A stretch of 64,000 bases of DNA from Sphingobium herbicidovorans (GTDB lineage: Bacteria > Pseudomonadota > Alphaproteobacteria > Sphingomonadales > Sphingomonadaceae): the NCBI RefSeq assembly GCF_002080435.1, contig NZ_CP020538.1:806001-870000 (forward strand), written 5' to 3'. Every line of letters begins with the position of its first letter. Within the stretch, counting starts at the first letter, position 1. The translations under genes and the position numbers were made by a program. This document shows positions 46,566-64,000 of this stretch, piece after piece. Below the pieces are notes generated by a model that saw nothing but the letters and a program-made list of their open reading frames with translations, did no database searches and was not told the origin of the DNA.

Positions 46566-46778
46566 CACCCTCTCCTGCCGCAGTGTCATTTTGACTGCGT
46601 GCTCTTCAACCTACATCTTCTTGTCGCTTGATTTGTGATCGGATCGCCACCCGAAAGCTGTTCATCGACCGGGCAAATCTGTTCGCTTTTCCCAAAGTAT
46701 AAGGCCAATCAGGCGACGATTATGTCGTTTCCGGTGTCGACTGAACCGGGCTTCAGCCGTGTATGATGAGCGCAGGGC

Positions 46779-47249: not shown

Positions 47250-47596
47250 GCCATGATCTCCGGCCCCCCTTTTTTACCGGTCGCACCGTGCTGGTGGACG
47301 CGCATGCAGGTGGAATCGATCATCACCAACTCGCCGTTGAACCCTGCAGAAACCGCCGCCAATAATCGGTCCCACACCCCAGCTTTCCGCCAGCGGACGA
47401 ACCGGTTGTAGCAGGTCGTCGATGGCTCATAGCGTTCCGGGATCTCCGCCCACGGCGCGCCGGAACGGAAGCGCCAGAGAATGCCGTTTAGCACCCGCCG
47501 GTCATCTACCCGGGGAACACCACGCGGCTTGTTGGGCAGCAATGGCTCGATGATCAGCCATTCCTTATCCGTCAGTTCGTACCGCCGCCGCGACAT
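47174..47596 (-). CDS. IS transposase, first reading frame
   Basis: The N-terminal 140 codons of an IS5-type transposase: 'LTDKEWLIIEPLLPNKPRG', 'RRVLNGILWRFRSGAPWAEI' and the first catalytic aspartate in 'VMIDSTCMRVHQHGATGKKG'. GGAGGGTGT precedes the ATG at 47596; an upstream frame extension is unlikely. The run of six A and six G (47264-47275 on the minus strand, codons GGT AAA AAA GGG GGG) is a plausible slippage site to enter the second frame. After it this frame runs on without similarity to transposases until 47174. Confidence 0.88.
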   Translation of the reverse strand: MSRRRYELTDKEWLIIEPLLPNKPRGVPRVDDRRVLNGILWRFRSGAPWAEIPERYEPSTTCYNRFVRWRKAGVWDRLLAAVSAGFNGELVMIDSTCMRVHQHGATGKKGGPEIMAWDAPGAVSRPNSTLLSTLMDVLSG

Positions 47597-47822
47597 ACAC
47601 CCTCCATTTTCGAAGAGCGCCTGAATCACGCAAAGGCGGAGAGCTCAACCCAATTTATGAGTTCACGCCCTAGCAACGGGTTGGAGCCGTTAAGCCTTTG
47701 GGTCGCGGCCGCCTCATGGACGCTGATGCGGATCGAAGCGACGTTCCGAGCTCTTATCAAGATTTGCAACCGTGTCGAGCAAGCCGCCGATCAAGCGCGG
47801 CTAATCGATAGGGGATGTTGAT

Positions 47823-50324: not shown

Positions 50325-50339
50325 TTCCACCATGTGGAA
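50325..50339. promoter_or_regulatory. Palindromic operator 1 (IclR-type)
   Basis: TTCCAC-CAT-GTGGAA is a perfect 6-bp palindrome around CAT, 84 bases before the receptor ATG. IclR proteins typically bind such short TGGAA/TTCCA palindromes, and an IclR gene is the next one upstream. Confidence 0.65.
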
Positions 50340-50710: not shown

Positions 50711-51505
50711 TCAGAAACTCTGTGCAGCGATTTCCATGCTCATCCGCTGCGCCGCGCTGATCAGCGCGGGGCCCAACTCATCCAGCCGAGCGCGGGGCAG
50801 ATGGGATGATCGATCCGAAATCGACAGCGACCCCTTTGGCAGGCCGTAACGATCGTTCACGACCGCCGCGACGCAGCGCAATCCGTCGCTATGCTCTTCA
50901 TCATCGAGCGCATAGCCTCGCATGCTGATGTCCGCCAACTCGCGACGGAGCCGGTCGCCATCGATGATGCTGCGTGCGGTACGCGCCTTGAGTGGTGCGC
51001 TGCCCAGATAGCGGTCGACTTCCGCCCTGGACCATTGCGCCATCAGCACCTTGCCAGACGCCGTGGTATGCAGCGGCAGCACGGCGCCGGGCCGGGCCGC
51101 CGTCTGGCGGAACCCGTTTGCCGCAGCCTGCCCGACATAGCAGACGCCAGCGCCCTCCGGCACCGCGATGTTCACGCAATGCTGCACTTCGGACATCAAT
51201 GATCGCATGATCGTGCGGCCCAGCTGACCCAAATCACGCGTTTGCGCGAATACGGCCCCTACGGTAAAAGCCTGGACCCCAATGGACCAACCGTTCCTGC
51301 GCCGGTCAAACGCCACATAGCGTAGCGCTTCCATGGTCGTCAGCAGGCGATGGGTGGTGGATCGCGGCAGACCGACGGCGCGAGACAGGTCGCTGAGCGT
51401 CATATTGTCGCTCTTTGCCAGTTCATCGAGAATGCCAAATGCCCGCACAAGCGACTGAACTCGCCCGAGCAAGCCGTCTTCCGGTTCTTGCTGACTATCG
51501 GCCAC
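50711..51505 (-). CDS. IclR-family transcriptional regulator
   Basis: A 264-aa regulator. The N-terminal winged helix ('LVRAFGILDELAKSDNMTLS', 'LSRAVGLPRSTTHRLLTTME') is followed by the ligand-binding domain ('RTIMRSLMSEVQHCVNIAVP', 'VLPLHTTASGKVLMAQWSR', 'RGYALDDEEHSDGLRCVAAV'). It is divergent from the first GHL6-like gene (207-base gap) and lies upstream of the TonB receptor on the same strand. The palindromes in that receptor's leader fit IclR sites. It is the probable switch of the whole 47.8-64 kb island, with a small organic acid as the likely effector by analogy with the family. Confidence 0.92.
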   Translation of the reverse strand: MADSQQEPEDGLLGRVQSLVRAFGILDELAKSDNMTLSDLSRAVGLPRSTTHRLLTTMEALRYVAFDRRRNGWSIGVQAFTVGAVFAQTRDLGQLGRTIMRSLMSEVQHCVNIAVPEGAGVCYVGQAAANGFRQTAARPGAVLPLHTTASGKVLMAQWSRAEVDRYLGSAPLKARTARSIIDGDRLRRELADISMRGYALDDEEHSDGLRCVAAVVNDRYGLPKGSLSISDRSSHLPRARLDELGPALISAAQRMSMEIAAQSF

Positions 51506-51712
51506 GCCTGTTCCTCACCTTGCCTGATCACCACCGCACAAGCGACAATCTTTCGAACTGGTATGACCTGTTTGCCCCTGTTTGTCGAGATACTTTCTGT
51601 GTCGGGCTGTGCCGGGGAACAGGGCGCCCTTTGATCGCGGCGTTCCGTATTATGGGATGGCGAATTGTGGATGGCGCAGCTTGGGTTACTTTCGTCGCTG
51701 CAAGGAGAGACG

Positions 51713-53917
51713 ATGCCCGATATATTACCACTTGATCGCCGCGCGGCCCTTGCATTGGGCGCTGGAGCCCTGCTGTCCGGGATCGAACCAGCCTTCGCGC
51801 GCCGGTTGAGCAGCGGCGCGACACCCAGTTGGGCCAGCGAGCCTATGCGCTGGTTCCAGCTCGCCTTCACCGAAGATGATCCGGGTCAGTATGATCCCGC
51901 ATTCTGGACTGACTATTTTCGACAGATCCACGCGGACGGAGTATGCTTGAGCGCAGGGGGCGGCATCGCATTCTATCCGACGGACATTCCCTATCACGGC
52001 ATGGCGCAGGGCGTCGGCAAGGGCATCGACCCGTTCGGCGACATGGTGGCAGCTTGCAAGAAACTTGGACTGCGTGTGCTCGCCCGCATCGATCCGCACG
52101 CGATGAACGCAGACGCCGCTGCTGCCCATCCCGAATGGGCGCTGACCGGCCCGGACGGTAAAATCAAGCAGCACGGCAGCGCGCCGGACCTGACGCTGAC
52201 ATGCGCCTATGGCGCTTATAATTTCGAGCTGATGCCAAAGGTGATCGAGGAGATCGCCCGGCGCTACCCGGTGGACGGCTTTTTCGGCAATCGCTGGAAC
52301 GGCAGCGGCACATGCTATTGCCAAAGCTGCCGCACGCTCTATCGCGCTGCATCGGGGCAGGACGTCCCGCTCGATCCAGACCCGTCGAAGCTGGAGGGGC
52401 GACGCTATGCAGCATGGATCGAAGAGCGGCTCTTCTCCCTCATCGACCTGTGGAATGCGGCGGCGCGCAAGCACCGGCGGGAAGCCTTCTTCACGCCTGG
52501 CGGAGACCGCAGGGGCCTGGTTGACCTGAATGGACCGGCCCTGTCGAAACGTCTGCCGCTCGCTTTCTGCGACCGTCAGGCGCGATCGTCGGATAGTTCA
52601 CCATGGGGCACGGGACCGGAGGTCTGGGGCGCGGGCCGCTACACGCGCGAACTGCGCGCCTTCATGAAGGACAAGCCGGTCGGCCATATCATTTCCGTGG
52701 GCGTGGAAGAGGCCTATCGCTGGAAAGATTCGGTACAGAGCCCGGCGGAAATCCGGATCTGGGCCGCTGGGGCGATCGCCCAAGGTGCGCGTCCGTGGAT
52801 CACGAAGTTCAACGCCAAGCCGCTGGATCGCCGATGGATGGATGTCGTCCGGCAGATCTACGGGTGGCATCATGCCAATGAAACCTATCTGCGCAACACC
52901 CACAACCTGGCGCGAGTTGGCCTGCTGCATACGCCGCGCACCACCGCCTATCTGGGCGGCTGGACCGGGCGCGGAAAGCTTGAGGAGCATGGCGCCGGCT
53001 TCTATCAGGCGGCGCTGGAAAGTCGGGTGCCATTCGACCTGATCGACGAGGATTTCCTTGACGCTGACAGCCTGTCGCGCTTTCGCACGCTCATCCTCGC
53101 CAATGCGGCGGTGCTGTCGGACAGGCAATGCGATCAGGTCCGTGCCTTCGTGGCGCGCGGCGGCAGCGTCATCGCAACGTATCAGACCTCGCTGTATGAT
53201 GGCGATGGACGGCAGCGGACAGATTTCGGCCTCGCCGACCTGTTCGGCTGCTCCATCGCGGGCAAGGTCGAAGGCCCGATGAAAAACGCCTATCTGACCT
53301 TGCGTCACGCCCATCCGGCCATGGCTGGGCTGACCGATATCAGCCGAACCATCGGCCCGTTGTTCCGCCTGCCCGTGACAGCGCGTGATCAGCGCGAGGT
53401 CGCCTTGACGCTCGTGCCCAGCTATCCCGACTTGCCGATGGAACGGGTTTTCACCGACCGCACAAAGACCGACATACCCATGGCGATCTGCCGTCAGGTC
53501 GGGCGCGGCCGTGTCGTTTATCTGCCGATGGACCTTGATCGCAGCTTTGCGGAGCTTGGTCATGGCGATCATCTGACGCTGCTGCGCGCCATGCTCAATT
53601 GGGCGCATGAAGAAGCGCATCCGTTGCAAGTCGATGGGCCGGGCCTGCTCGACATCGCCTGCTGGCGGCAGGAAAGGTCGCTCACCGCGCATCTCGTCAA
53701 TCTCAACAATCCCATGGCGATGCGCGGCAGCTATCGTGAGGCGATCCGCACCGGCCCCTATCGCGTCCGTTTGCAACTGCCCGAAGGGCGCCGCGCGGCC
53801 CGTGCCCGACTGTTGACGGCCGGAGCCGACGTGGCGCACCGCGCGACGGATGGCTGGGTCGAGGTTGATGTGCCGCACATCGACTTCCATGAAGTGGTCG
53901 CGATTGATTTGACGTAG
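51713..53917 (+). CDS. Exported GHL6-like putative glycoside hydrolase
   Basis: A 734-aa exported protein. The leader 'LDRRAALALGAGALLSGIEP' has a twin arginine (Tat). Next comes a TIM-barrel domain of the hypothetical glycosyl hydrolase 6 kind ('HADGVCLSAGGGIAFYPTDI', 'ACKKLGLRVLARIDPHAMN', 'PVDGFFGNRWNGSG'), with a C-x-C-x2-C motif in 'CYCQSCRTLY' that may hold zinc. A beta-galactosidase trimerisation-like domain follows ('FRTLILANAAVLSDRQC', 'FVARGGSVIATYQT'), then a C-terminal beta domain. AAGGAGAG supports ATG 51713. The second such protein lies at 60598-62754. The sugar substrate is unknown. Confidence 0.82.
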   Translation: MPDILPLDRRAALALGAGALLSGIEPAFARRLSSGATPSWASEPMRWFQLAFTEDDPGQYDPAFWTDYFRQIHADGVCLSAGGGIAFYPTDIPYHGMAQGVGKGIDPFGDMVAACKKLGLRVLARIDPHAMNADAAAAHPEWALTGPDGKIKQHGSAPDLTLTCAYGAYNFELMPKVIEEIARRYPVDGFFGNRWNGSGTCYCQSCRTLYRAASGQDVPLDPDPSKLEGRRYAAWIEERLFSLIDLWNAAARKHRREAFFTPGGDRRGLVDLNGPALSKRLPLAFCDRQARSSDSSPWGTGPEVWGAGRYTRELRAFMKDKPVGHIISVGVEEAYRWKDSVQSPAEIRIWAAGAIAQGARPWITKFNAKPLDRRWMDVVRQIYGWHHANETYLRNTHNLARVGLLHTPRTTAYLGGWTGRGKLEEHGAGFYQAALESRVPFDLIDEDFLDADSLSRFRTLILANAAVLSDRQCDQVRAFVARGGSVIATYQTSLYDGDGRQRTDFGLADLFGCSIAGKVEGPMKNAYLTLRHAHPAMAGLTDISRTIGPLFRLPVTARDQREVALTLVPSYPDLPMERVFTDRTKTDIPMAICRQVGRGRVVYLPMDLDRSFAELGHGDHLTLLRAMLNWAHEEAHPLQVDGPGLLDIACWRQERSLTAHLVNLNNPMAMRGSYREAIRTGPYRVRLQLPEGRRAARARLLTAGADVAHRATDGWVEVDVPHIDFHEVVAIDLT

Positions 53918-53963
53918 CGAGCCCGTCAAAGTGGTCTCCATTTTCAAGAAAGAAGCAGCCGTC

Positions 53964-54767
53964 ATGATCGACCGCCGCGACATGCTGGCTCTGGGCACGC
54001 TTGGCGCGCTCGCTCTGGGCACATCATCGCTTGCCGACGCCGCCTCCGTGACTCCAGACCAGGTCAGCCTGCCCTTTCATGGACGGCAGTTACACGTCCT
54101 TGACCTCACGCATCGCCTGACGCGCGCCTTCGCGTTCACGCCGGGCCGCCTCTCCATGGAGGCGGTGGAAGGATCGGGGACGAAAGCGGGCATGGCGCTC
54201 AACCGAATTTCCATCGTCGAACATACCGGCACCCACCTCGACGCGCCGCGCCATTTCGCGCCCGACGGAGCATCGGTCGGCGACATCGCGATCAGCCAGT
54301 TGATCGTTCCGCTCGTCATCATCGACATCAGGAAAAAGGCGAAGGCCGATCGTGACGCACGGGTCGAGCCAGAGGATGTCGCAGCCTGGGAACGGAAACA
54401 TGGCCGCATCCCTGCGGGTTCCTGCGTCGCCATGGTGTCGGGCTGGGATCCGCTGGGCGTCGTTGCCAATTACGGCAGCTTGTCCCCAGATGAGCGACGC
54501 AAGAGCCCCGGCTTCGATGCTGCGGTCATGGACATTTTGATGAAGCGAAACGTCATAGGGATCGGCGTCGACACTATGTCGATCGACGCGGGGGAAGCGA
54601 TGCCCGCCTTCCCCGTTCACCAGGCCTGGCTGCGAAGCGGGCGATGGGCGCTGGAGGGGTTGACCAATCTCGACCGGGCGCCCGTTGCCGGCGGCCTGCT
54701 GTTTGCAGGGGTCGCGCCGCTGGAAAACGCCACCGGCATGCCTGCGCGGGTGATCGCGCTCTATTGA
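53964..54767 (+). CDS. Exported cyclase-family protein (kynurenine formamidase-like metal hydrolase)
   Basis: A 267-aa enzyme of the cyclase family, metal hydrolases that include kynurenine formamidase and lactone or amide hydrolases. The metal motif is 'VEHTGTHLDAPRHFAPDG' (H-x-G-T-H-x-D-x-P-x-H). A Tat-like leader 'MIDRRDMLALGTLGALALGT' directs export. The family's later conserved stretch is 'GIGVDTMSID', followed by 'FPVHQAWLRSG' and 'LTNLDR'. ATG 53964 is preferred to a GTG at 53931 because it begins the leader. It follows the GHL6-like gene by 46 bases on the same strand and so probably acts after it, for example opening a lactone released from the glycoside. Confidence 0.87.
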   Translation: MIDRRDMLALGTLGALALGTSSLADAASVTPDQVSLPFHGRQLHVLDLTHRLTRAFAFTPGRLSMEAVEGSGTKAGMALNRISIVEHTGTHLDAPRHFAPDGASVGDIAISQLIVPLVIIDIRKKAKADRDARVEPEDVAAWERKHGRIPAGSCVAMVSGWDPLGVVANYGSLSPDERRKSPGFDAAVMDILMKRNVIGIGVDTMSIDAGEAMPAFPVHQAWLRSGRWALEGLTNLDRAPVAGGLLFAGVAPLENATGMPARVIALY

Positions 54768-54812
54768 AAAAAACGCTGCGGCGCCCGCCCGTGCAGGAGC
54801 GAGCGCCGCAGC
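54767..54812 (-). terminator. Terminator of the leftward lctP-to-SDR operon
   Basis: A perfect 10-bp GC stem (54775-54784 with 54803-54812, 18-base loop) is followed on the minus strand by GTTTTTTT. It lies nine bases past the SDR stop and overlaps the end of the convergent cyclase gene. Confidence 0.85.
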
Positions 54813-54820
54813 CAATGCCG

Positions 54821-55600
54821 TCAGGCGCGCATCAGCGATCCGCCATTGACGTCAAAGATCGCGCCATTGATCCAACGGCCATCTTCCGACAGCAGCATCG
54901 CGACGACACCCGCATGATCTTCGGATTCGCCCAGACGCGTGTGCGGAGTGCGCGCCATGAAATAGTCGGCCCACTTGGTGGCCTCTTCGGCATTCGCTTC
55001 CATCGCCTTTTTCATCTCGCCGGTCACTGTGAAGCCGGGTGCGAGGACATTGGCGGTAACGCCTTCCTTGCCCCAGCGCGCAGCGACATGGCGTGCCAGC
55101 GCGTTCACGCCCGCCTTCGCCATGGCATAGCAGGGCCGCGTCGGCTCGGCCCCATGTGCCGAGCCGGAGCTGGTGTAGACGATAGCCCCCTTCCCGCTCT
55201 TGACGAGGTACGGAACGACCGCGCGGGTGCACAGCAGATGTCCGCGCAAATTCACCGCGATCGTGCGGTCGAAGGTGGAAAGATCGATGGCAAGCGCATC
55301 GCTGTCCTCCATGATAACGCGCAGGTCCGCCGCGTTGATATGCGCGCCGTCAAGGCCGCCAAAGCGACTCACCGCTGCTTCGGTCGCATTCTGCACCGAG
55401 GCTTCGTCGGCAATATCGACATGGACGGCGAATGTTTCCCCTCCCGCTTCGTGCGCCACCTGCGTCGCGCCTTCAACGTTGATGTCGGCGGCGCAGACGC
55501 GCGCGCCTTCTGCGGCGAGGCGCTTGACAGTGGCAGCGCCAATTCCGGTCGCGCTGCCGAACACGATGATACGGCGGTCTTTGAGGCGATTGTTGGTCAT
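54821..55600 (-). CDS. SDR-family oxidoreductase
   Basis: A 259-aa short-chain dehydrogenase. Nucleotide loop 'IIVFGSATGIGAATVKRLAA', catalytic stretch 'IVYTSSGSAHGAEPTRPCYA' and 'YAMAKAGVNALARHVAARW' (Ser, Tyr, Lys), tail 'INGAIFDVNGGSLMRA'. It is the last gene of the lctP operon; its ATG overlaps the tartronate semialdehyde reductase stop by four bases. It resembles the SDR at 31149-31910. In a pathway to glycerate it may oxidise a sugar acid or alcohol before the isomerase step; this is inference. Confidence 0.9.
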   Translation of the reverse strand: MTNNRLKDRRIIVFGSATGIGAATVKRLAAEGARVCAADINVEGATQVAHEAGGETFAVHVDIADEASVQNATEAAVSRFGGLDGAHINAADLRVIMEDSDALAIDLSTFDRTIAVNLRGHLLCTRAVVPYLVKSGKGAIVYTSSGSAHGAEPTRPCYAMAKAGVNALARHVAARWGKEGVTANVLAPGFTVTGEMKKAMEANAEEATKWADYFMARTPHTRLGESEDHAGVVAMLLSEDGRWINGAIFDVNGGSLMRA

Positions 55601-56532
55601 GAGGATCCTTTGGAGAAGCCGGTGGTGTGAGAAATGTCTTCAGTTGAGCAACCACTCACCAAGTGATTAGCAGCCCGTTCGAGCGCCATCACCATCGCGC
55701 TGTGATCCTTTTCCGCATCGCCATAAGCAACGCAGCTGCTGAAAAGTTGCTGGGCATTCGCTGTCGCTGGCAGCGATATGCCCAGCGAGCGTGCACCAGA
55801 CAGCGCGAGATTGAGATCTTTTTGATGCAGCCGGATGCGGAAGCCGGGATCGAAGCTACGGTCGATCATGCGTTGGCCATGCACCTCCAGCACGCGCGAT
55901 GCAGCAAAACCGCCCATCAGCGCTTCCCGCACCCGCGCCGGGTCCGCGCCCGCCTTCGACGCGAAGACCAGCGCCTCCGACACAGCTTCGATGTTCAGCG
56001 CAACGATGATCTGGTTGGCCACCTTGGTAACCTGCCCCGCGCCTACTTCACCGACGAGCGTGATGTTCTTGCCCATCAGCTCCAGCAGTGGCCGGACCCG
56101 GTCGAACACGTGCGCCTTTGCTCCGCACATGATGGTGAGGGCGGCATTTTTCGCGCCTACTTCACCGCCGGAAACCGGTGCATCGACATAGTCGCACCCC
56201 AGCGCCTCGATCTTTGCTGCAAATTCGCGCGTGGCGATCGGGTCGATAGAGCTCATGTCGATGACGGTGGCGCCGGGCTTTACACCCTCCGCCACCCCAT
56301 CCGGGCCAAACAGCACGCGTTCGACGTCCGGCGTGTCGGGCAGCATCAGGATCAGGCACTCCACCTCAGCCGCCACCGCCGCCGGCGTGGGACATGCGAT
56401 GGCGCCGCCTTCACGCAATCCGTCGGGCATCGGCGTGCGATTGGCGCAGCTGTAGATCGCATGTCCTGCCGTTTGCAGGTGCCCGGCCATGGGACGCCCC
56501 ATGATGCCAAGGCCGATGAAACCGATTTTCAT
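55597..56532 (-). CDS. glxR: 2-hydroxy-3-oxopropionate (tartronate semialdehyde) reductase
   Basis: Beta-hydroxyacid dehydrogenase of 311 aa that would reduce tartronate semialdehyde to glycerate with NAD(P)H. The N-terminal Rossmann fold has 'KIGFIGLGIMGRPMAGHLQT', the substrate motif is 'DYVDAPVSGGEVGAKNAALT', and the catalytic lysine lies in 'GAGQVTKVANQIIVALN'. AGGAG precedes ATG 56532. One base separates it from the hydroxypyruvate isomerase stop. Order and neighbours match the classical isomerase-reductase-kinase route. L-threonate dehydrogenase (LtnD) belongs to the same family and remains an alternative. Confidence 0.9.
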   Translation of the reverse strand: MKIGFIGLGIMGRPMAGHLQTAGHAIYSCANRTPMPDGLREGGAIACPTPAAVAAEVECLILMLPDTPDVERVLFGPDGVAEGVKPGATVIDMSSIDPIATREFAAKIEALGCDYVDAPVSGGEVGAKNAALTIMCGAKAHVFDRVRPLLELMGKNITLVGEVGAGQVTKVANQIIVALNIEAVSEALVFASKAGADPARVREALMGGFAASRVLEVHGQRMIDRSFDPGFRIRLHQKDLNLALSGARSLGISLPATANAQQLFSSCVAYGDAEKDHSAMVMALERAANHLVSGCSTEDISHTTGFSKGSS

Positions 56533-56533
56533 G

Positions 56534-57319
56534 TCATGCTCTCCTGGAATTGAGATAAGGCTGCGCCCAACCCAGACCCGCCTTGGTATCGGCTGCGGGC
56601 CGGTATTCGCACCCGATCCACCCGTCATAGCCAAGCGCGTCGATATGGCTGAGAAGCCAGGGATAATTGATCTCTCCGCTGCCCGGTTCGGCACGGCCCG
56701 GATTGTCAGCCAACTGCATATGGCCAATCCGGGGCAGAAGACGTTCAATCGTGCGGGCAAGATCCCCTTCCATGATCTGCATATGATAGATGTCATATTG
56801 CAGGCGGACATTGCCCCGCGCTGCCTCGTCGATGACGGACAGGGCGTCGTCAGTCGTCCCGTAGAAATATCCGGGAATGTCGACACGGGTGTTGATAGGC
56901 TCGATCAGTATCTCGACACCATCAGCCGCAGCCAGTTCGGCAGCGTGCACGATGTTGGCTATCAGCGTCGACCGGCATTCAGCACTGGCAGGCGCCTTCC
57001 CGGCCATGAGGTGCAGGCGCGGGCAGCCTAGCGCTCGGGCATAATCCAGCCCCTTAGTCACGCCAGCGCGAAACTCCTCCACCCGGTCAGGCAGAGCGGC
57101 GATGCCCCGCTCTCCCCCGGCCCAGTCGCCTGCGGGGAGGTTGAACAGCACCACCTCCAGCCCGCATTTACGCGCGCGGCCCGCCACATCGGCCGGGTCG
57201 GTGTCATAGGGAAACATGAACTCGACGCCGGAAAAGCCTGCCGCTTCCGCCGCATCGAAGCGGTCGAGGAACGGCAGGTCCTGGAACATCATCGACAGAT
57301 TAGCTGCCAGCTTCACCAT
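56534..57319 (-). CDS. hyi: Hydroxypyruvate isomerase
   Basis: A 261-aa xylose-isomerase-like TIM barrel. It would convert hydroxypyruvate to tartronate semialdehyde. Typical stretches are 'KLAANLSMMFQDLPFLDRFD', 'GFSGVEFMFPYD', 'VEILIEPINTRVDIPGYFY', 'VRLQYDIYHMQIMEGDLART' and 'IGCEYRPAADTKAGLGWAQP', with the metal-binding Glu, Asp, His and Glu of the family. Start is the ATG at 57319 (AGAGAAGAG upstream). The tight spacing to the reductase and kinase genes supports the glycerate route. 2-Oxotetronate isomerase (OtnI) is a close relative and could be the true activity. Confidence 0.9.
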   Translation of the reverse strand: MVKLAANLSMMFQDLPFLDRFDAAEAAGFSGVEFMFPYDTDPADVAGRARKCGLEVVLFNLPAGDWAGGERGIAALPDRVEEFRAGVTKGLDYARALGCPRLHLMAGKAPASAECRSTLIANIVHAAELAAADGVEILIEPINTRVDIPGYFYGTTDDALSVIDEAARGNVRLQYDIYHMQIMEGDLARTIERLLPRIGHMQLADNPGRAEPGSGEINYPWLLSHIDALGYDGWIGCEYRPAADTKAGLGWAQPYLNSRRA

Positions 57320-57344
57320 ATCTCTTCTCTCTAATCCGTGCCGT

Positions 57345-58664
57345 TCAGAACGCGATGCCCAGCACCAGGTCCATGACGTTGGTTCCCGTCGGGCCCGTGT
57401 GGAACAGGTCGCCCGTCTCTTCGAACAGGTGGTAACTGTCGTTGCGCGCCAGCATCTCTTCCGCGTCGAGTCCCGCCGCACCCGCTCGTTCGTGCAGCGC
57501 GCCGTCGGCAAAAGCTCCTGCCGCATCGGTCGGCCCGTCGGTGCCATCCGTACCAGCAGCGAGCAGCGCGGCATTGTGCTCCCCCGCCAGCGCCAGGGCT
57601 GCGACCAGCGCATATTCCTGGTTGCGCCCGCCCAGACCGTCGCCCTTCACCTGCAATGTCGTTTCCCCGGCGGATACCAGAAGCGCGGGGCGATCCTGCG
57701 GCGGGACTGCCCGCAGAGCAACCGTCATCTTCAGCGCCGCATCGTGCGTGTTGCCCGCCATGGCTGCGTCCACATTGTGAACGGTAAGTCCCTCCCGCGC
57801 GGCTATGCCGTGCACCGCCTCCACAAGCATGGCGCTATCCGCGAGTATCAGCGCCTCCTGGCGCCCTGCGGCTCGCGTAGCAGGCGGCTCCTCTTTCGCC
57901 AGTATGTCGCGGATAGATGCAGGCACCGCTTGCTCCAACCCATAGCGCGCCAGGATTGCCATCGGACTCGCAGCATCCTCCCTGCGCGCGATGGTCGGCC
58001 CCGATCCGATCATGCAGAGGTCGCCGCTGGGAATGTCCGACATCAGCAGCGTCAGCACCGATGCGGAACCAACATGGTCCAACAGCCCGCCGCCCTTCAC
58101 CCGCGACAGGCGCTTGCGAACAGCGTTAATCTCTTCGATTGAGGCCCCGGATCGTAGCAGCAGGTCGGTCACCGCCGCCTTTTCCTCAAGCGTCACGCCA
58201 TCGGCAGGGGCAACCATCAGCGCTGATGCGCCGCCGGTCAGCAACACGATGACGGTGTCGCGCTCCGTCAGCCCTTCGACCCTACGCAGCATTTCGGTCG
58301 TCGCTTCTACGCCTTGCGCGTCGGGGATGGGGTGCCCGGCCTGGCGCTGCCGAATACGTCTTAGCATCGGCTCGGCATGGCCATGCTTCACGATGATGCA
58401 GCCGTCGGAAATCCGGTCGCCAAGCAGCGTTTCCAGGCCCTTTGCCAAAGACCCGGCTGCTTTTCCCGCACCGATCACGACGATGCGGCCATCGGGGTGC
58501 AGGGGCCAGTCGATGACCTTGTCCCTGTGGCTGATCCGCCAGCGGTCACCCTGCGGCGCGCCAAGACCTTCGACCAGCCTTTCCCCGCGCACCGATTCAA
58601 GCGCCTCCACGTAGATATTCTTCAGCAGCGCACGGACGGCTGCCACCTGAGAAAGATCGCCCAT
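57345..58664 (-). CDS. gckA: Glycerate 2-kinase, MOFRL/GckA-TtuD family
   Basis: A 439-aa kinase that phosphorylates glycerate to 2-phosphoglycerate. The N-terminal domain has 'IVVIGAGKAAGSLAKGLETL' and 'TVIVLLTGGASALMVAP', and the C-terminal MOFRL domain 'LLVSAGETTLQVKGDGLGGR' with 'NQEYALVAALALAG' and 'ALLAAGTDGTDGPTDAAGAF'. I use the ATG at 58664, four bases after the permease stop; an upstream frame beginning at 58700 would overlap the permease gene. It provides the exit of the pathway into lower glycolysis. Confidence 0.92.
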   Translation of the reverse strand: MGDLSQVAAVRALLKNIYVEALESVRGERLVEGLGAPQGDRWRISHRDKVIDWPLHPDGRIVVIGAGKAAGSLAKGLETLLGDRISDGCIIVKHGHAEPMLRRIRQRQAGHPIPDAQGVEATTEMLRRVEGLTERDTVIVLLTGGASALMVAPADGVTLEEKAAVTDLLLRSGASIEEINAVRKRLSRVKGGGLLDHVGSASVLTLLMSDIPSGDLCMIGSGPTIARREDAASPMAILARYGLEQAVPASIRDILAKEEPPATRAAGRQEALILADSAMLVEAVHGIAAREGLTVHNVDAAMAGNTHDAALKMTVALRAVPPQDRPALLVSAGETTLQVKGDGLGGRNQEYALVAALALAGEHNAALLAAGTDGTDGPTDAAGAFADGALHERAGAAGLDAEEMLARNDSYHLFEETGDLFHTGPTGTNVMDLVLGIAF

Positions 58665-58668
58665 GTGG

Positions 58669-60339
58669 TCAGGGCACCAGCAGGGTGAAGGGATAGACAT
58701 AGGCTTGCAACATCACGAACAGCCCGATCAGCGAGCCCAGCACAACGCTGTGGACGAACACGTGGCGCAGGATGCGGCCTTCCTGCCCGAACCATTGGGT
58801 GGCGGTGGAGGCAACGACGATGCTCTGCGCGTCGATCATCTTGCCCATGACGCCGCCCGCGCTGTTCGCCCCTGCCATCAGCACGGGTGGCAGGCCCAGC
58901 TGTTCTGCGGTGATCTTCTGCAATCCGCCGAAGAGCACGTTCGACGCCGTATCCGATCCCGTGACCGCAACGCCCAGCCATCCGAGCATGGTGCCGAAGA
59001 AGGGATAGAGCACGCCCGTCGCTGCAAAGGCCAGCCCCATCGACGCGTCGATGCCGCCAAACCGGGTGAGATAGCCCAGCGCCAGCATGGCCGCGATGGT
59101 GAGCAGCGATGGCAGCACCAGCTTCCATGTGCGCAGATAGACAAGGCCGACCGTGCGCGCGGGCACCCGCAGCAGCAGTGCGGAGGCAAGCGCGGCCACC
59201 AGGATCGCTGTGCCCGTCGCCGACAGGAGATTGAGGTTATAGACGGCCTTTTCATATTCAGGCGCGCTGACGACAGGCGGCAGCCGCTGGATCACCCCAT
59301 CAAGCCCGGCAAAGGGCAGACGCAGCGCGAAGATCGCATCCAGCCCCTGCTTCATGAAGGGGAGGCCCCACAGGAAAACGCAGCCGGTCAGGATGATCCA
59401 CGGCATCCACGCGCGGCGGACGGCGGCAGGGTCATGCAGCGGCTGAGCATTGGCCGCATCCGCTGTCGCCGCAACGTCCCGCTCATCCCCTGCGGCGAGC
59501 TTCGCCTCATTGACATGCATGATGCGCGCGGGCTGCCATATCCGCAGAAAGGCGATCAGCGTGGCGATAGAGGCAAGCGCCGCGCCGATGGAGGTGAGCC
59601 AGGGCCCGTGAAGATTGGAAATGAGCAATTGCACGACCGCAAAGCTGACGCCTGCCACCAGCACTGCCGGGAGCACCTCCATCGTCCGCCGCCATCCGCA
59701 ATAGGCCACCAGCAACCAGAAAGGCACGATGATGGCGAAAGGCGTCATCTGCCGCCCGACCATCGCCGATAATTCCATCAGCGGAAGACCCGTCACCCCG
59801 GCCAACGTAACCAATGGCGTGCCGAGCGCCCCAAAGGCGACAGGCGCTGTATTGGCGATCAGCGACAGGCCGGACGCCTGCAGCCGCGTGAAGCCAAGTC
59901 CGATCAGCATCGCGCCCGTCACCGCGACCGGAGTCCCGAACCCCGCAGCGCCCTCGAAAAAAGCGCCAAAGCAGAATGCGATCAGGAGCAGCTGCAACCG
60001 GCTATCCCCCGTGATCGATGTGATCGCCCCACGCAGCACATGGAACTGCCCGGTCGTTTCCGTCAGCTGATACAGGAAGATGATGTTAAGCACGATCCAG
60101 CCGATCGGCAGCAGCCCGTAGGCGGCCCCGAACCCCGCCGCACGAAGCGCCAGGCCCGCAGGCATGCCGAACGCCAGCACCGCGACGGCCAGGCCTGCTC
60201 CTAGCCCCATGAGTGCGGCGATATGCGCCCGCACATGAAACAGGCCGATCGCGCCGAGCAGCACGACCACAGGGACGGCAGCTACCAGCGCGGACAGCAG
60301 ACCATTGCCCAAAGGATCATAATTTTGCGCCCAGATCAT
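58669..60339 (-). CDS. lctP: L-lactate permease family transporter
   Basis: Inner-membrane transporter of 556 aa with about 12-14 hydrophobic segments. 'GAFFEGAAGFGTPVAVTGAM' and 'IANTAPVAFGALGTPLVTLA' are hallmarks of the LctP family, which carries lactate, glycolate or related hydroxy acids. Further family signs are 'FGTMLGWLGVAVTGSDTASN' and 'LFGGLQ', then 'NSAGGVMGKMIDAQSIVVA'. As first gene of the operon with kinase, isomerase and reductase it probably imports a hydroxy acid such as glycerate, hydroxypyruvate or a tetronate. Its promoter lies in the 258-base gap to the divergent GHL6-like gene. Confidence 0.93.
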   Translation of the reverse strand: MIWAQNYDPLGNGLLSALVAAVPVVVLLGAIGLFHVRAHIAALMGLGAGLAVAVLAFGMPAGLALRAAGFGAAYGLLPIGWIVLNIIFLYQLTETTGQFHVLRGAITSITGDSRLQLLLIAFCFGAFFEGAAGFGTPVAVTGAMLIGLGFTRLQASGLSLIANTAPVAFGALGTPLVTLAGVTGLPLMELSAMVGRQMTPFAIIVPFWLLVAYCGWRRTMEVLPAVLVAGVSFAVVQLLISNLHGPWLTSIGAALASIATLIAFLRIWQPARIMHVNEAKLAAGDERDVAATADAANAQPLHDPAAVRRAWMPWIILTGCVFLWGLPFMKQGLDAIFALRLPFAGLDGVIQRLPPVVSAPEYEKAVYNLNLLSATGTAILVAALASALLLRVPARTVGLVYLRTWKLVLPSLLTIAAMLALGYLTRFGGIDASMGLAFAATGVLYPFFGTMLGWLGVAVTGSDTASNVLFGGLQKITAEQLGLPPVLMAGANSAGGVMGKMIDAQSIVVASTATQWFGQEGRILRHVFVHSVVLGSLIGLFVMLQAYVYPFTLLVP

Positions 60340-60464
60340 CGCGCCACCCTTGCCTTGTTCTCGGTCAACTTTCGCTCCAATCGCGTCGCAGCTGAGGGTT
60401 CAGCAAACTCGGCAAGCAGTCGCTAAGCTGGAGACCTTAGGAACGAAACTCGTCTTTCCGCGAT

Positions 60465-60479
60465 GCGGAACACATCCGC
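60465..60479. promoter_or_regulatory. Short palindrome in the divergent lctP / GHL6 promoter gap
   Basis: GCGGA-ACACA-TCCGC is a perfect 5-bp inverted repeat in the 258-base gap (60340-60597) between the divergent permease and second GHL6-like genes. It is not like the CAT-centred palindromes of the island. No other structure was seen in the gap. Confidence 0.3.
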
Positions 60480-60597
60480 CGTCCAGCGGCATGGCGTCCC
60501 ACAGGGCGGAACGCCGGTCGCCGGACGATTGTGGACGGAGTGTGGCCGGGGCAGACTGGAACCGGGACGTCCGAAATAGATCAGGAGCATGAGGAGG

Positions 60598-62754
60598 ATG
60601 GAGTTGAAAGCGAACGGCGGGATTTCGCGCCGCGACCTCGTGCGCGCCCTGCCCGCGGCAGCGATGGTGAGCACTCTTCCCAGTCAGAGCTGGGCTGCTG
60701 AGAACAGTGGCAGCTTTGATCGGCGGCAATGGTGGGAGCATGAATATCGCATTCTCCAGACCAATCTGCGCGAAATCGACGCACTTGAAGATCCCCGGAC
60801 GATCGCCCGCGAAACCCGCGCGTTCGGGGCTAACGTCATCGTTTCGAACATTGGCGGCATTGTCGCCTTTTACCCTACTCAATTGCCGCTTCATTATCGC
60901 AACCCGTTCATGAAGACCGACTTCGCAGGTGAAATGGTGGCCGCCGCCCATGCGGAGGGCCTGGCCTATATAGGGCGCTTCGATCTCTCCAAGGCGACGA
61001 AGCCTGCCTATGATGCACATCCCGACTGGTTCATGCGCAATCGCGACGGCACTCCGCGCGAATATGCCGGGACGTACCAGGCGTGCCCCAATGGTGGCTG
61101 GGCGCAGGATTATAGCCTGCAAATCTTGAAGGAAGGGGTCGAGCGTCACGACGTCGATGGGCTGTTCTTCAACATGACGGCCTTTGTGCGGACCGACTAT
61201 TCCAACGTGGATCATGGCATTTGTGTATGCGACAATTGCCAGCGGCGGTTCCGGGAGCTTTACAAGCTGGAACTTCCCCGAACCGATGACGGAACCGATC
61301 CCAATTGGGGCGCCTATCAACAGTTTCAGTCGCGTATCATGGCCGAACTGTCAGCCAAGGCGCGCGAAGTTATCAAGGCAGCGCGCCCTAACGTGCCGCT
61401 GATGGACTTTTTCGGCGGCGTGGTCGCGCGCGGGGAGGTGCAGCGGCGTGTGTCGCGTAAAGCGCCGGAATGGCCGCACGCCATGGGGGAACAGACGCGC
61501 GCCTTGATGGCGCTAGCGCCGGGCAAGGCTTTTTCCGCGACGTCTGCCGCGCATATGGACTATCCATGGCGGCAAGTGACGGAAAGCGCCGAAAACCACC
61601 TGCTGCGCTTCGCCCAGGCATTGGGCACTGGAGCCAAGCTTGACCTTTACCTGATGGGCACGCTGGGTGATCAGGACGATCCCCGCTTCCTGCCGCCGGT
61701 TTCGCGCCTGTTTCACTGGCACGCGGCCAATGAGCAGCACTATGCCGGGCTGGAGCCGGGTGCGAGGATCGCGCTCTACAATATGGGCTCGATCTTTCAA
61801 TCGGCTGGCACGGGCCTGGCGCGCTACAGCAATAATGCACAGCGGGGCGCTTATCAGGCGCTGGTCGATGCACGCCTGCCCTTCTGGATGACCAACGGCA
61901 TGCAGGTGGCCAAGGCCACCAAGGACCGCGCCTATGATGTCATCATCATGCCGCATATCATGAGCCTTGATGAAGGCGACGCCGCCGCGCTCGACGCCTT
62001 CGTGGAGGCCGGCGGCTTGATCATCGCCACCGGCTATACGGGTGCGCTGGGCAAAGACGGCAAGCCGCGGAGCAGACCGGCAATGAAATCAAGCCCGGTA
62101 GACAGCTTCGGCCAACCGCGCGACGGCCATGGCTGGTCGCTCGACATGAGCAAGGCGGCCATTCCCATGGGGCCGGGGCGGATGCCCATCGACGAAACAT
62201 TCTTCCCGGTTACGCCCCGCACCGGCGCGACAAGCCTGATCCCGTTCGCACCGGACCAGCGCTTCGGCCCGCCCGAATTTTCCTATGCCCGGCCGGGCGA
62301 AGCCGCGCGTGCCGACGCGGGTGCGCTGGTGATGGCTTATGGCAAAGGGCATCATGTCCATGTCCCATGGCTGCCCGACTGGCTCTACTATCGCGACGGT
62401 ACGGACGCGCACCGACTGTTGTTCGAAAGCCTGATCGCTCGTTACGCCCCGCCGCCACCTCTTCTTCTGGAAGGCCGAGGCCCGATCGAGATGATGGCGA
62501 TGCGGCAACCCGCCACGGGCAAGATGCTGGTCCATGTCATAAACTATTCGGGCCAGCGCAACACCCGCTATGGCGATCCGGTGATTGCACAAGGACTGAA
62601 GCTTGGCGTGCGTGGCCCGGCAGGCGGCACTGCCCGGATGCTGGTGGCTGGAAAGGCGGTCCGGGGCAAGCGGCGCGCCGGCGACCAGGATCATCTGTGG
62701 TTCGATCTGCCGCCGGTCGATACCTTTGAGGCGGTGCAGCTCACAATGAGCTGA
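60598..62754 (+). CDS. Exported GHL6-like putative glycoside hydrolase (paralogue)
   Basis: A 718-aa exported protein with the same design as that at 51713-53917: twin-arginine leader ('GISRRDLVRALPAAAMVSTL'), TIM-barrel with 'FGANVIVSNIGGIVAFYPTQ' and 'HAEGLAYIGRFDLSKATKP', the C-x-C-x2-C motif in 'GICVCDNCQRRFRELY', a trimerisation-like domain ('YDVIIMPHIMSLDEGDAAAL', 'FVEAGGLIIATGYTG') and a C-terminal beta domain. Overall identity to the first looks low, so they probably act on different linkages or steps. I use ATG 60598, ten bases after AGGAG; ATG 60589 is too close to it. Confidence 0.82.
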   Translation: MELKANGGISRRDLVRALPAAAMVSTLPSQSWAAENSGSFDRRQWWEHEYRILQTNLREIDALEDPRTIARETRAFGANVIVSNIGGIVAFYPTQLPLHYRNPFMKTDFAGEMVAAAHAEGLAYIGRFDLSKATKPAYDAHPDWFMRNRDGTPREYAGTYQACPNGGWAQDYSLQILKEGVERHDVDGLFFNMTAFVRTDYSNVDHGICVCDNCQRRFRELYKLELPRTDDGTDPNWGAYQQFQSRIMAELSAKAREVIKAARPNVPLMDFFGGVVARGEVQRRVSRKAPEWPHAMGEQTRALMALAPGKAFSATSAAHMDYPWRQVTESAENHLLRFAQALGTGAKLDLYLMGTLGDQDDPRFLPPVSRLFHWHAANEQHYAGLEPGARIALYNMGSIFQSAGTGLARYSNNAQRGAYQALVDARLPFWMTNGMQVAKATKDRAYDVIIMPHIMSLDEGDAAALDAFVEAGGLIIATGYTGALGKDGKPRSRPAMKSSPVDSFGQPRDGHGWSLDMSKAAIPMGPGRMPIDETFFPVTPRTGATSLIPFAPDQRFGPPEFSYARPGEAARADAGALVMAYGKGHHVHVPWLPDWLYYRDGTDAHRLLFESLIARYAPPPPLLLEGRGPIEMMAMRQPATGKMLVHVINYSGQRNTRYGDPVIAQGLKLGVRGPAGGTARMLVAGKAVRGKRRAGDQDHLWFDLPPVDTFEAVQLTMS

Positions 62755-62805
62755 CGTTCGGACGGGGGAGAGGCCGCTGGCCGCCCCTCCCCGCCCTGAG
62801 CCCGA

Positions 62806-63873
62806 TCAGAAGTCCGGGGCGAGATCCATCAATACAATGCCCTGGCCAACGCCTGCGTCAATCACGTCGGCCGATCCAACCTGCGCCGCGATCATCCGGC
62901 CATCCGGCCGCACGACAGGGTTGCCATATTTCCAGCCGCCATATTGCACAATGTTCGTCATGCGCGTGTAGCGGGGCTTTTTAGTTTCAAGGTCCAGCAC
63001 GCAAAGATCCATGCCCTTCGACCGGTCCTGCGCGCATTCGACCAGGGTCCGCTTGCCGTCAGGAAAAATGCCCTCGACTTCGTTATAGATGGTAGCAGGC
63101 GTCGGATATTCGGTGATATTTTTAGTCGCGAAATCAACCGAAAGAACTTTGGTCTCTACACCCGTCGGCCCTTTGCCGTGATAATAGCAGGGCATGGTCA
63201 ACCCCTTGTCGCCCGGCAAGAAGTCCTGCGCTTCAACGAAGCATTCAGTGGTCGTCACGATTTCCCGCACGTCTTCCAGCTTTGCCGACTGCCCGTTAAC
63301 GGCAACGCGGCCAGTGTAGATGGTCGTCGATGCTGGCTTGCCGCCACCCGGCGCCTTCACCTGGCTCCACGCGACCATGTTGCTGCGCGGGCTCACCGCT
63401 ATTCCTTCGAACACGGTGATGCCCAACGGAACTGGCGCACTCATCGCCTGTGCGTCCATCCAGAACAGTTCGATACGGCCATGGCGGGTTTCTTCCCGCG
63501 TCTTTCCCAAAATGCGGGGGCCAAGCAGCATGTAGCTGCCGTCAGGGAGATAATGCACCCGCAAAAAGCCTTCGCTGGCGGCGTGGCTTGTCAGGTTGCG
63601 CGTACGGCCAGTCGCCATGTCATATTCAAAGGCGTCTCCATAGGATTTGCCGATGAACGCCAACTTGTCCCCTTTAGCCGAAAAGACGGGCCGTTCCCCG
63701 AATGCGGAGATCAGGCGCTGCCCGGGCGGCATGTCTTGAATGGGATTACCCGGCTTGTTTCCCAGCGGCATCGTCGCGGGCACGGCGTCGCCGCGGGTAA
63801 AGGTCTGCGCGGTGAGCGCGGACAAGGGCACTGCCGCAAATAGCGCGGTGGCCAACACATGCTTTGCCTTCAT
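62806..63873 (-). CDS. Exported beta-propeller (PD40/TolB-like) protein
   Basis: A 355-aa protein with a signal peptide ('KHVLATALFAAVPLSALTAQ'). Repeats of the type 'RPVFSAKGDKLAFIGKSYGD', 'FLRVHYLPDGSYMLLGPRIL' and 'EGIFPDGKRTLVECAQDRS' indicate a WD40/PD40-like propeller with about six blades. Such proteins act as binding scaffolds or, in the oligogalacturonate lyase group, as enzymes. No lyase motif could be confirmed. It converges with the GHL6-like gene, 51 bases away, and its leader carries a degenerate copy of the CAT-centred palindrome, so it probably belongs to the IclR island. Confidence 0.75.
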   Translation of the reverse strand: MKAKHVLATALFAAVPLSALTAQTFTRGDAVPATMPLGNKPGNPIQDMPPGQRLISAFGERPVFSAKGDKLAFIGKSYGDAFEYDMATGRTRNLTSHAASEGFLRVHYLPDGSYMLLGPRILGKTREETRHGRIELFWMDAQAMSAPVPLGITVFEGIAVSPRSNMVAWSQVKAPGGGKPASTTIYTGRVAVNGQSAKLEDVREIVTTTECFVEAQDFLPGDKGLTMPCYYHGKGPTGVETKVLSVDFATKNITEYPTPATIYNEVEGIFPDGKRTLVECAQDRSKGMDLCVLDLETKKPRYTRMTNIVQYGGWKYGNPVVRPDGRMIAAQVGSADVIDAGVGQGIVLMDLAPDF

Positions 63874-63941
63874 TGATCGTCCTCCTTATCCCTGCGCAAG
63901 CAGCTTGCAGGCCGCCGCAAGTCAAGCTGGCGTAATGGATG

Positions 63942-63957
63942 TTTCACCATATGGACA
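63942..63957. promoter_or_regulatory. Degenerate copy of the CAT-centred palindrome
   Basis: TTTCAC-CAT-ATGGAC matches operator 1 (50325-50339) at 12 of 15 positions and keeps the CAT centre. It lies 69 bases before the propeller gene's ATG. With one arm altered it could be a weak site. Confidence 0.45.
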
Positions 63958-63963
63958 GGACGA

Positions 63964-64000
63964 CTAACCGCTGGTCAGGAAACGCGGCGGGCGGTAAAGC
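63964..64000 (-). CDS. Possible 3' end of a further leftward gene at the right edge
   Basis: On the minus strand the last bases read 'LYRPPRFLTSG' followed by a TAG at 63964-63966. The rest would lie outside the window. Eleven codons are too few to assign a family, and another reading frame is also open, so this is only a hint. Confidence 0.25.
   Translation of the reverse strand, partial: LYRPPRFLTSG

What the first reader, a model, noticed from the sequence alone, without database searches (positions are those of the whole stretch)
50711..63873. IclR-controlled island joining two exported GHL6-like glycosidases to a hydroxypyruvate-to-2-phosphoglycerate route
In one 13-kb stretch lie an IclR regulator, two paralogous Tat-exported GHL6-like proteins, a Tat-exported cyclase-family hydrolase, an exported propeller, and an operon of LctP permease, glycerate kinase, hydroxypyruvate isomerase, tartronate semialdehyde reductase and an SDR; a TonB receptor adjoins. 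The cytoplasmic half is the known isomerase-reductase-kinase route. The exported half has no known substrate that I can name. Together they suggest that a glycosylated or lactone-bearing compound is broken outside the cytoplasm to a hydroxy acid of three or four carbons, which LctP then imports.
Basis: partly seen in the sequence, partly recalled or inferred. Interest (0 to 1): 0.72.

Follow-up and report, generated by a model that had tools for sequence, protein, structure and literature searches.

The report
Island joining odd exported glycosidases to hydroxy-acid use
In a sphingomonad bacterium two exported glycosidase-like proteins, which have lost a key catalytic residue of their nearest relatives, sit in what looks like one regulon with genes for taking up and burning small hydroxy acids, and the same partnership recurs in rearranged form in related bacteria, so the cell probably splits an unknown sugar-acid compound outside its cytoplasm.

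Summary
IclR, two paralogous Tat-type GHL6 proteins (A, B), a cyclase-family hydrolase and an LctP-GckA-Hyi-GlxR-SDR operon lie at 50711-63873, with a TonB receptor beside them. The island runs 8.4 kb past the window's end: GntR regulator, second glycerate kinase, exported TIM barrel, GPH sugar symporter, RpiB, ribokinase-like kinase, exported propeller.

The proposed link between the halves is supported. In 13 of 14 sphingomonad genomes with an A- or B-type gene, GlxR and a glycerate kinase lie within 9 kb, in about eight gene orders. In 397 genomes, GlxR and GHL6 co-occur in 11 (Fisher p 4e-13). A palindrome, TTCC-N7-GGAA, stands before TonB, IclR/A, LctP/B and GckA2, and is largely conserved in three close relatives.

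The parts
47857..50241 (-). TonB-dependent outer-membrane receptor (likely entry door for the substrate)
   Evidence: PF00593/PF07715 above cut-off; kept beside the island in L020-L022; exact TTCC-N7-GGAA 84 bp upstream of its start
50325..50339 (.). palindrome TTCCACCATGTGGAA, candidate operator of the TonB gene
   Evidence: exact match, 2 found against 0.91 expected per 64 kb window; also upstream of TonB in L021 and L022 (exact) and L020 (1 mismatch)
50711..51505 (-). IclR-family regulator
   Evidence: PF09339 58.6 and PF01614 110.6 bits; best NCBIfam relative BhcR 209.5, below its cut-off 350
51643..51657 (.). palindrome TTCCGTATTATGGGA between divergent IclR and GHL6-A
   Evidence: 1 mismatch to TTCC-N7-GGAA; similar in L020 and L022, two mismatches in L021
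51713..53917 (+). GHL6-A: exported GH151-like protein, 734 aa, nucleophile position Asn193, Asp287 near the acid/base position
53964..54767 (+). exported cyclase-family (isatin-hydrolase-like) metal hydrolase, about 45 bp after GHL6-A
   Evidence: PF04199 119 bits; PDB 8f9x E 2e-46, isatin hydrolases E 2e-32, HTGTHxDAPxHF stretch aligned; first ATG at 53964, a GTG at 53961
54821..55600 (-). SDR oxidoreductase, last gene of the acid operon
   Evidence: PF13561 166 bits; overlaps GlxR by 4 bp
55597..56532 (-). GlxR-type tartronate semialdehyde reductase
   Evidence: TIGR01505 383.6 > 340.75; PDB 1yb4 tartronic semialdehyde reductase E 4e-109, second after 9rb2 'probable oxidoreductase'
56534..57319 (-). 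Hyi/OtnI: hydroxypyruvate or 2-oxo-tetronate isomerase
   Evidence: NF043033 360.4 > 325; TIGR03234 347.1 < 353.45
57345..58700 (-). GckA glycerate 2-kinase (DUF4147 + MOFRL)
   Evidence: PF13660 236, PF05161 129 bits; narrow NCBIfam kinase models below their cut-offs
58669..60339 (-). LctP/GlcA-family hydroxy-acid permease, first gene of the acid operon
   Evidence: PF02652 475 bits; TIGR00795 476.8 > 341
60456..60470 (.). palindrome TTCCGCGATGCGGAA between divergent LctP operon and GHL6-B
   Evidence: exact; identical in L020, L021, L022
60497..60511 (.). second palindrome TCCCACAGGGCGGAA, 41 bp from the first
   Evidence: 1 mismatch; exact form at 40-41 bp spacing in L020, L021, L022
60589..62754 (+). 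GHL6-B: exported GH151-like protein, 721 aa, nucleophile position Asn195, Glu283 near the acid/base position
62806..63873 (-). exported (Sec-type by eye) protein, possible beta-propeller
   Evidence: PD40 E 0.087 only; homologues beside GHL6 in G436, G445, G410, G545
63874..64000 (.). edge of the window; the island goes on for about 8.4 kb in the genome (locus L157 = G000:C1:870001-889900): GntR/FadR 7-738+, GckA2 735-2039-, FG-GAP protein 2137 to about 3400-, Tat-type AP_endonuc_2 TIM barrel 3387-4337-, GPH symporter 4364-5692-, RpiB 5811-6317+, ribokinase-like 6324-7256+, PD40 propeller 7282-8442+
   Evidence: block conserved in G621, G622, G623

Best explanation
This is one catabolic regulon for a conjugate made of a sugar and a small hydroxy acid. 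Steps marked (I) are inferred. The conjugate enters the periplasm through the TonB receptor (I). There the Tat-exported GHL6-A and GHL6-B and the cyclase-family hydrolase split it (I; exported by signal, GH151-like by fold, activity not shown). The two GHL6 proteins probably act one after the other on different bonds or anomers, with a changed catalytic set: Asn at the old nucleophile and an Asp/Glu-x-Gln at the acid/base strand. The acid half is imported by LctP (I). It is turned into 2-phosphoglycerate by Hyi, GlxR and GckA (families shown; the route is established knowledge; the real substrate is not known). This genome has no glyoxylate carboligase above cut-off and no 3-oxo-tetronate kinase match, so hydroxypyruvate, tartronate semialdehyde or glycerate is the likely entry point. 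In the five genomes that carry it beside GHL6, the sugar half goes through a GPH symporter, a ribokinase-like kinase and RpiB, which points to a pentose, most likely ribose (I). An IclR regulator acting at TTCC-N7-GGAA sites joins the exported and the cytoplasmic genes (I). In other genomes the same kind of GHL6 protein sits with D-erythronate or glycolate genes, so the acid part may vary from C2 to C4 (I).
For: Gene content and order. Synteny in three more genomes, and rearranged co-location in others; 13 of 14 genomes have GlxR and a glycerate kinase within 9 kb. Co-occurrence: 11 of 17 GlxR genomes and 11 of 18 GHL6 genomes coincide among 397, p 4e-13; without the own genome and its nearest relative p 9e-11; by genus p 7e-6. 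Two deeply separate GHL6 clades (A and B) both carry the link; label changes on the tree 6 against 17.1 shuffled, 0 of 500 as low. Shared palindrome in promoters of both halves, largely conserved in three close relatives. No glyoxylate carboligase above cut-off (343 vs 711) and no OtnK match in the own genome. Erythronate genes above curated cut-offs in G436 (three) and G624 (OtnK, DenD); GlcF of G117 and malate synthase G of G445 above cut-offs. Sugar block.
Against: The GH151 nucleophile is lost in A and B, so hydrolysis is not proven. Outside sphingomonads the link is rare: 5 of 76 loci (L024-L099) show GlxR, Hyi or LctP near GHL6-A, and few neighbours recur. The sugar half stands beside GHL6 in only 5 of 14 genomes, has its own GntR regulator and, apart from GckA2, has no TTCC-N7-GGAA site at the promoters examined. 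The ribokinase-like protein is below the ribokinase cut-off (239.6 < 299.65), RpiB is below its equivalog cut-off (122 < 138.65), and GlcD of G445 is below its cut-off (526 < 568). GlxR also occurs without GHL6 in 6 of 397 genomes, two of them with Hyi. G545 has GHL6-B without a nearby GlxR. In 14 loci of more distant genomes the exact palindrome is not enriched: 8 sites, about 3 of them at an IclR or GckA gene, and 7 loci have none.
Confidence: 0.55

Rival explanations
1. Shared island, unrelated jobs: the hydroxy-acid operon scavenges free glycerate, glycolate or erythronate from the surroundings, and the GHL6 proteins attack an ordinary plant or microbial glycan. They are together because both serve plant-derived carbon, not because one makes the substrate of the other.
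For: Hyi and GlxR occur without GHL6 in G497 and G458; GHL6-A stands without acid genes in most loci outside sphingomonads (71 of 76); the lower acid modules vary between genomes.
Against: Linkage holds in 13 of 14 sphingomonad genomes across about eight gene orders and in two old paralogous clades; conserved palindromes lie in the shared divergent LctP/GHL6-B promoter and, in three of four genomes, at the IclR/GHL6-A promoter; the genome lacks a glyoxylate carboligase above cut-off and OtnK, the usual partners for free glyoxylate and tetronate.
Confidence: 0.25
2. GHL6-A and B are pseudo-enzymes: carbohydrate-binding or capture proteins that lost catalysis, and the cyclase or the exported TIM barrel does the cutting.
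For: The position of the GH151 nucleophile Asp154 is Asn in 54/54 A and 57/57 B sequences.
Against: The pocket is not decaying. Asp287-x-Gln (A, 54/54) and Glu283-x-Gln (B, 57/57) at the acid/base strand, Asp or Glu at 127 (A, 54/54), Lys365 (A, 54/54) and Asp352 (B, 57/57) are kept, which suggests selection for chemistry. Two paralogues both keep it.
Confidence: 0.15
3. A and B are plain GH151 alpha-L-fucosidases; the fucose is broken to L-lactate, which explains LctP.
For: Best fold relative of both is the GH151 fucosidase 6tvk, and best sequence relative of A in the PDB; LctP belongs to the lactate permease family.
Against: The GH151 nucleophile is replaced by Asn in every A and B sequence examined; no fucose-pathway enzyme is among the family matches listed for the island or its continuation (the genome at large was not searched for one); Hyi, GlxR and GckA have no role in fucose or lactate use (established knowledge).
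Confidence: 0.05

Closest known systems
GH151 alpha-L-fucosidases (ALfuk2 of Paenibacillus thiaminolyticus, PDB 6TVK; Mfuc3)
   Different: 16-19% identity; nucleophile Asp154 is Asn in A and B; near Glu235 stand Asp287 / Glu283 in a D/E-x-Q motif; Tat-type signal; different genomic company
Escherichia coli gcl-hyi-glxR glyoxylate/allantoin route (recalled)
   Same: Hyi, GlxR and a glycerate kinase with an IclR-family regulator
   Different: no glyoxylate carboligase in this genome above cut-off; a permease of the LctP family and exported GHL6 and cyclase proteins instead of allantoin genes; MOFRL-type kinase
D-erythronate pathway DenD-OtnI-OtnK-OtnC
   Same: the isomerase scores above the OtnI cut-off; the triad DenD-OtnC-OtnK stands in three related islands
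   Different: OtnK has no match in the window's genome; DenD and OtnC do not appear in the island, the rest of the genome was not searched for them
polysaccharide-utilisation-type loci with TonB receptors (recalled)
   Same: TonB receptor, exported hydrolases, inner-membrane importer, dedicated regulator
   Different: the cytoplasmic end is for small hydroxy acids as well as a sugar; I found no characterised member of the Asn-type exported proteins in the searches listed

Membership tests
GH151 alpha-L-fucosidase | overall fold and domain order as in ALfuk2 (6TVK) | tested here: met
GH151 alpha-L-fucosidase | catalytic nucleophile Asp at the end of strand 4 (D154) | tested here: not met
   Asn in 54/54 A and 57/57 B sequences; alignment with 6tvk; residue assignment from passages of PMC10154630
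GH151 alpha-L-fucosidase | acid/base Glu at the end of strand 6 (E235) | tested here: inconclusive
   Asp287 (A, 54/54) follows and Glu283 (B, 57/57) ends the strand that I count as the sixth in the models; the loop aligns poorly with 6tvk
GH151 alpha-L-fucosidase | hydrolysis of alpha-L-fucosides | not testable with these tools
   needs enzyme assay
hydroxypyruvate / tartronate semialdehyde / glycerate route to 2-phosphoglycerate | tartronate semialdehyde reductase | tested here: met
   TIGR01505 383.6 > 340.75; the narrower PRK15059 (394.5 < 451) and PRK11559 (310.5 < 397) are below cut-off
hydroxypyruvate / tartronate semialdehyde / glycerate route to 2-phosphoglycerate | hydroxypyruvate isomerase | tested here: inconclusive
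   TIGR03234 347.1, cut-off 353.45; NF043033 2-oxo-tetronate isomerase 360.4 > 325
hydroxypyruvate / tartronate semialdehyde / glycerate route to 2-phosphoglycerate | glycerate 2-kinase | tested here: met
   DUF4147 and MOFRL domains far above cut-off; the narrow NCBIfam kinase models are below their cut-offs
glyoxylate (Gcl) pathway | glyoxylate carboligase in the genome | tested here: not met
   only one match, 342.9 bits against a cut-off of 711.2
D-erythronate pathway | OtnK 3-oxo-tetronate kinase | tested here: not met
   no match in the own genome at E <= 0.001; present in G624 and G436 above cut-off, in G410 by 60% identity
ribose utilisation (RbsK-RpiB) | ribokinase | tested here: inconclusive
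   TIGR02152 239.6, cut-off 299.65
ribose utilisation (RbsK-RpiB) | ribose-5-phosphate isomerase B | tested here: inconclusive
   PF02502 144.9 bits, PRK05571 subfamily 154 > 135, but TIGR01120 122.1 < 138.65

The most novel reading that the evidence does not exclude
Asn-type GHL6 proteins are a new glycosidase family with a changed catalytic set. In sphingomonads they open glycosides whose aglycone is a short aldonic acid (glycolate, glycerate, D-erythronate), in the window's type ribosides, a class of compound for which no degradation system is known to me. One regulon takes up and burns both halves.
Probability: 0.2. Interest if true: 0.78.

Novelty: new variant of a known kind. Interest (0 to 1): 0.55.

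Why it matters
It gives a functional handle on a large family of exported proteins (PF14871) of which only a few GH151 fucosidases are characterised, to my knowledge. It predicts a kind of nutrient, a sugar bound to a C2-C4 hydroxy acid, that would not be found by looking at either half alone. It also predicts that the invariant Asn-type active site does chemistry that GH151 does not. Each prediction can be tested with a few deletions and two purified proteins.

Tried and rejected
Rejected or left open.
- Free glyoxylate as entry: no glyoxylate carboligase above cut-off in the own genome.
- Tetronate as the window's own substrate: no OtnK match.
- Plain GH151 fucosidase: nucleophile is Asn.
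- PF07075 in the own genome: no match (a wrong first guess at the accession).
- A box guessed after E. coli IclR from memory, TTGGAAY-N6-TTCCAA: 7 sites against 16.9 expected, not enriched.
- Recurrent neighbours of GHL6-A outside sphingomonads: none in more than 5 of 76 loci, and the one in 5 looks like an antisense frame over GHL6-A itself.
- Not searched: fucose genes, DenD, OtnC, or a 5-keto-4-deoxyglucarate aldolase (another source of tartronate semialdehyde) in the own genome.
- Literature (titles and starts of abstracts seen unless said otherwise): GHL6 as a whole word is in 3 papers, of which I read passages of one, PMC4723247; GH151 with fucosidase 30 papers, 15 listed, of which I read passages of one, PMC10154630; GH151 with Sphingomon* 3 papers; hydroxypyruvate isomerase with Sphingobium 0; erythronate with glycoside hydrolase 5, none relevant by title; D-erythronate or 3-oxo-tetronate 43, 10 listed; hydroxypyruvate isomerase with tartronate semialdehyde and glycoside hydrolase 1, not relevant by title; glucosylglycerate with glycerate, permease and hydrolase 4. 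I found no report of this island in those searches; the library holds open-licence papers only.
- Fold: the plain Foldseek PDB search was not run; only the second-look aligner was used.
- Counts that dropped rows: the genome-contig scan kept 80 of 304 confirmed loci. The tree used 56 rows: every fourth of L024-L099 plus loci named in the script; proteins under 480 aa and genes masked by a longer antisense frame were left out. The neighbour table asks for E <= 1e-20 and half of the query covered; the GHL6-B fragment in L023 (111 aa) and the IclR fragment in L126 (86 aa) drop out under it.
- The number of gene orders (about eight) is my count by eye, with G290, G453 and G511 taken as one.
- The palindrome was first seen by eye in two of the promoters (IclR/A and LctP/B), so the test of 5 sites against 0.57 is partly circular. 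The TonB and GckA2 sites were not used to find it; two exact hits in those 566 bp have a Poisson chance of about 3e-5, but the two regions were picked after seeing the hits.
Full report
WHAT IS THERE. GHL6-A (51713-53917) and the cyclase gene (53964-54767) run right, about 45 bp apart, divergent from IclR. LctP, GckA, Hyi, GlxR and SDR run left as one tight unit (gaps -32, 25, 1 and -4 bp), divergent from GHL6-B (60589-62754). GHL6-A and B are old paralogues (HHalign probability 100, 22% identity). Both keep a twin-arginine N-terminus. The propeller call for 62806-63873 rests on a sub-threshold PD40 match.

BEYOND THE WINDOW. The next 8.4 kb of the contig (L157) hold a GntR/FCD regulator, a second DUF4147/MOFRL glycerate kinase, an FG-GAP protein (named from its 64% homologue in L126), a Tat-type xylose-isomerase-like TIM barrel, a GPH sugar symporter, an RpiB-family isomerase, a ribokinase-like kinase and an exported PD40 protein. 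This block is complete at 76-97% identity in G621 (Chol11) and G623 (OAS761), contiguous with the acid half. In G622 (S. vermicomposti) most of it has moved to the other side of the island but stayed adjacent, while GckA2 stayed. G436 carries GPH, GntR, kinase and RpiB (70, 50, 47, 77%) beside its LctP and GHL6-B. G410, G445, G511 and L023's genome, searched whole for the symporter, have no close match; in G117, G290, G453, G545 and G556 only the stretches fetched around GHL6 were looked at.

THE LINK IS REAL IN SPHINGOMONADS. PF14871 is over its cut-off in 18 of 397 genomes of the window's family, and GlxR at E <= 1e-60 is in 17 of 397. Eleven have both; Fisher p is 4e-13, 9e-11 without the own genome and its nearest relative, and 7e-6 by genus. 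In 10 of the 11 the two lie side by side; in the eleventh (G545, a 78% complete draft) they are on different contigs. GlxR is near in 13 (within 5 kb), a glycerate kinase in 13 (within 9 kb), an LctP-family permease in 12 (one at 19.9 kb), Hyi in 10, IclR in 9 (for 13 of them; for the window). Gene order differs in about eight ways by eye. On a tree of 56 GHL6 proteins the sphingomonad A clade (10 rows, support 99/99) is acid-linked throughout and the sphingomonad B clade (8 rows, 100/98) in 7 of 8; the label needs 6 changes against 17.1 when shuffled.

WHERE IT FAILS. In the 76 other loci of the genome-contig scan (Acidobacteria, Verrucomicrobia, Planctomycetes and others) five show GlxR, Hyi or LctP homologues (L026, L051, L062, L063, L066) and none a GckA; 56 of the 76 are at least 12 kb long. 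More distant GHL6 genes of sphingomonads, including a clade that keeps the Asp, stand mostly in other company. Seven of 18 GHL6 genomes lack GlxR and six of 17 GlxR genomes lack GHL6 at these thresholds. So the link belongs to the sphingomonad A and B clades, not to PF14871 as such.

SHARED CONTROL. A 15-bp palindrome, TTCC-N7-GGAA, stands before TonB (50325, exact), between IclR and GHL6-A (51643, one mismatch), twice between LctP and GHL6-B (60456 exact, 60497 one mismatch) and before GckA2 (L157 2106, exact). The main LctP/B site is identical in three relatives; its second copy keeps 40-41 bp spacing; the TonB and GckA2 sites are kept in all three (L020 TonB with one mismatch), and the IclR/A site has two mismatches in L021. 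Exact sites also lie before IclR in L132 and L141, and at the start of the GckA frame in L023, whose real start is unsure. Against it: in 14 loci of more distant genomes there are 8 exact sites in all, the other five not at IclR or GckA, and 7 loci have none; one exact site lies inside a gene (L157 4240). Five sites in 1468 intergenic bases of the island compare with 0.57 expected (2 of 2000 simulations as many); part of that is circular, as told under Tried and rejected. That IclR is the protein that binds is inference. The sugar block's Prop-GntR and GPH-RpiB intergenic stretches lack the site.

WHAT THE ACID IS. The own genome has no glyoxylate carboligase above cut-off and no 3-oxo-tetronate kinase match, so Hyi-GlxR-GckA is probably fed by hydroxypyruvate, tartronate semialdehyde or glycerate. 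Three related islands (G624, G436, G410) add DenD-OtnC-OtnK. In G436 all three are above their curated cut-offs and in G624 OtnK and DenD are; in G410 they are identified by 60-71% identity. G117 and G445 add glycolate oxidase genes (GlcF of G117 above its cut-off, GlcD of G445 below, 526 < 568); G445 adds malate synthase G above its cut-off and G511 a 73% homologue of it. D-erythronate, D-glycerate and glycolate are the C4, C3 and C2 members of one series of chain-shortened aldonic acids (established chemistry). A sugar-aldonate conjugate is therefore the most economical substrate class. That the sugar is ribose rests on the ribokinase-like and RpiB families alone, both short of their narrow cut-offs.

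NOVELTY. Parts are known; the combination, and the Asn-type active site tied to it, I did not find in print (searches, mostly listings).

Noticed in passing
window 42305-46589 (-): DUF1552 (HXXSHH) protein, a five-domain PSD/PSCyt (DUF1587-1595-1592-1588-1585) protein, and a third protein without a Pfam match, in one unit; homologues lie between TonB and IclR in L021 and near them in L020, and were not met in L022. Possibly tied to the island.
   Followed up: partly
window 46836-47629 (-): IS4/5-type transposase in two overlapping frames, standing between the DUF1592 genes and the TonB receptor; it may mark where the island was rearranged.
   Followed up: no
L119-L123 (G010, G017, G075) and L140 (G500): A separate GHL6 clade on the tree; the four members aligned (L119, L122, L123, L140) keep the Asp at the nucleophile position. 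In L119-L123 SDR genes lie nearby; a different, probably more classical GH151-like system.
   Followed up: partly
L023, from 1068: Only a 111-aa piece of a GHL6-B homologue is seen beside GckA-GlxR-GHL6-A in S. arseniciresistens H39-3-25, so B looks lost there.
   Followed up: no
L132 6623-8932 (+): 769-aa protein with a twin-arginine N-terminal stretch between GlxR and GHL6-A in G445, with no Pfam match at E <= 0.001.
   Followed up: no
L126 13394-15187 (-): A divergent LctP-family permease (355 bits to PF02652) beside GHL6-B, with an MFS transporter; this island shows no GlxR or glycerate kinase nearby.
   Followed up: partly
L141 7430-8590 (+): FMN-dependent L-lactate dehydrogenase LldD (590 > 550) and an aldehyde dehydrogenase inside the G410 island.
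   Followed up: no
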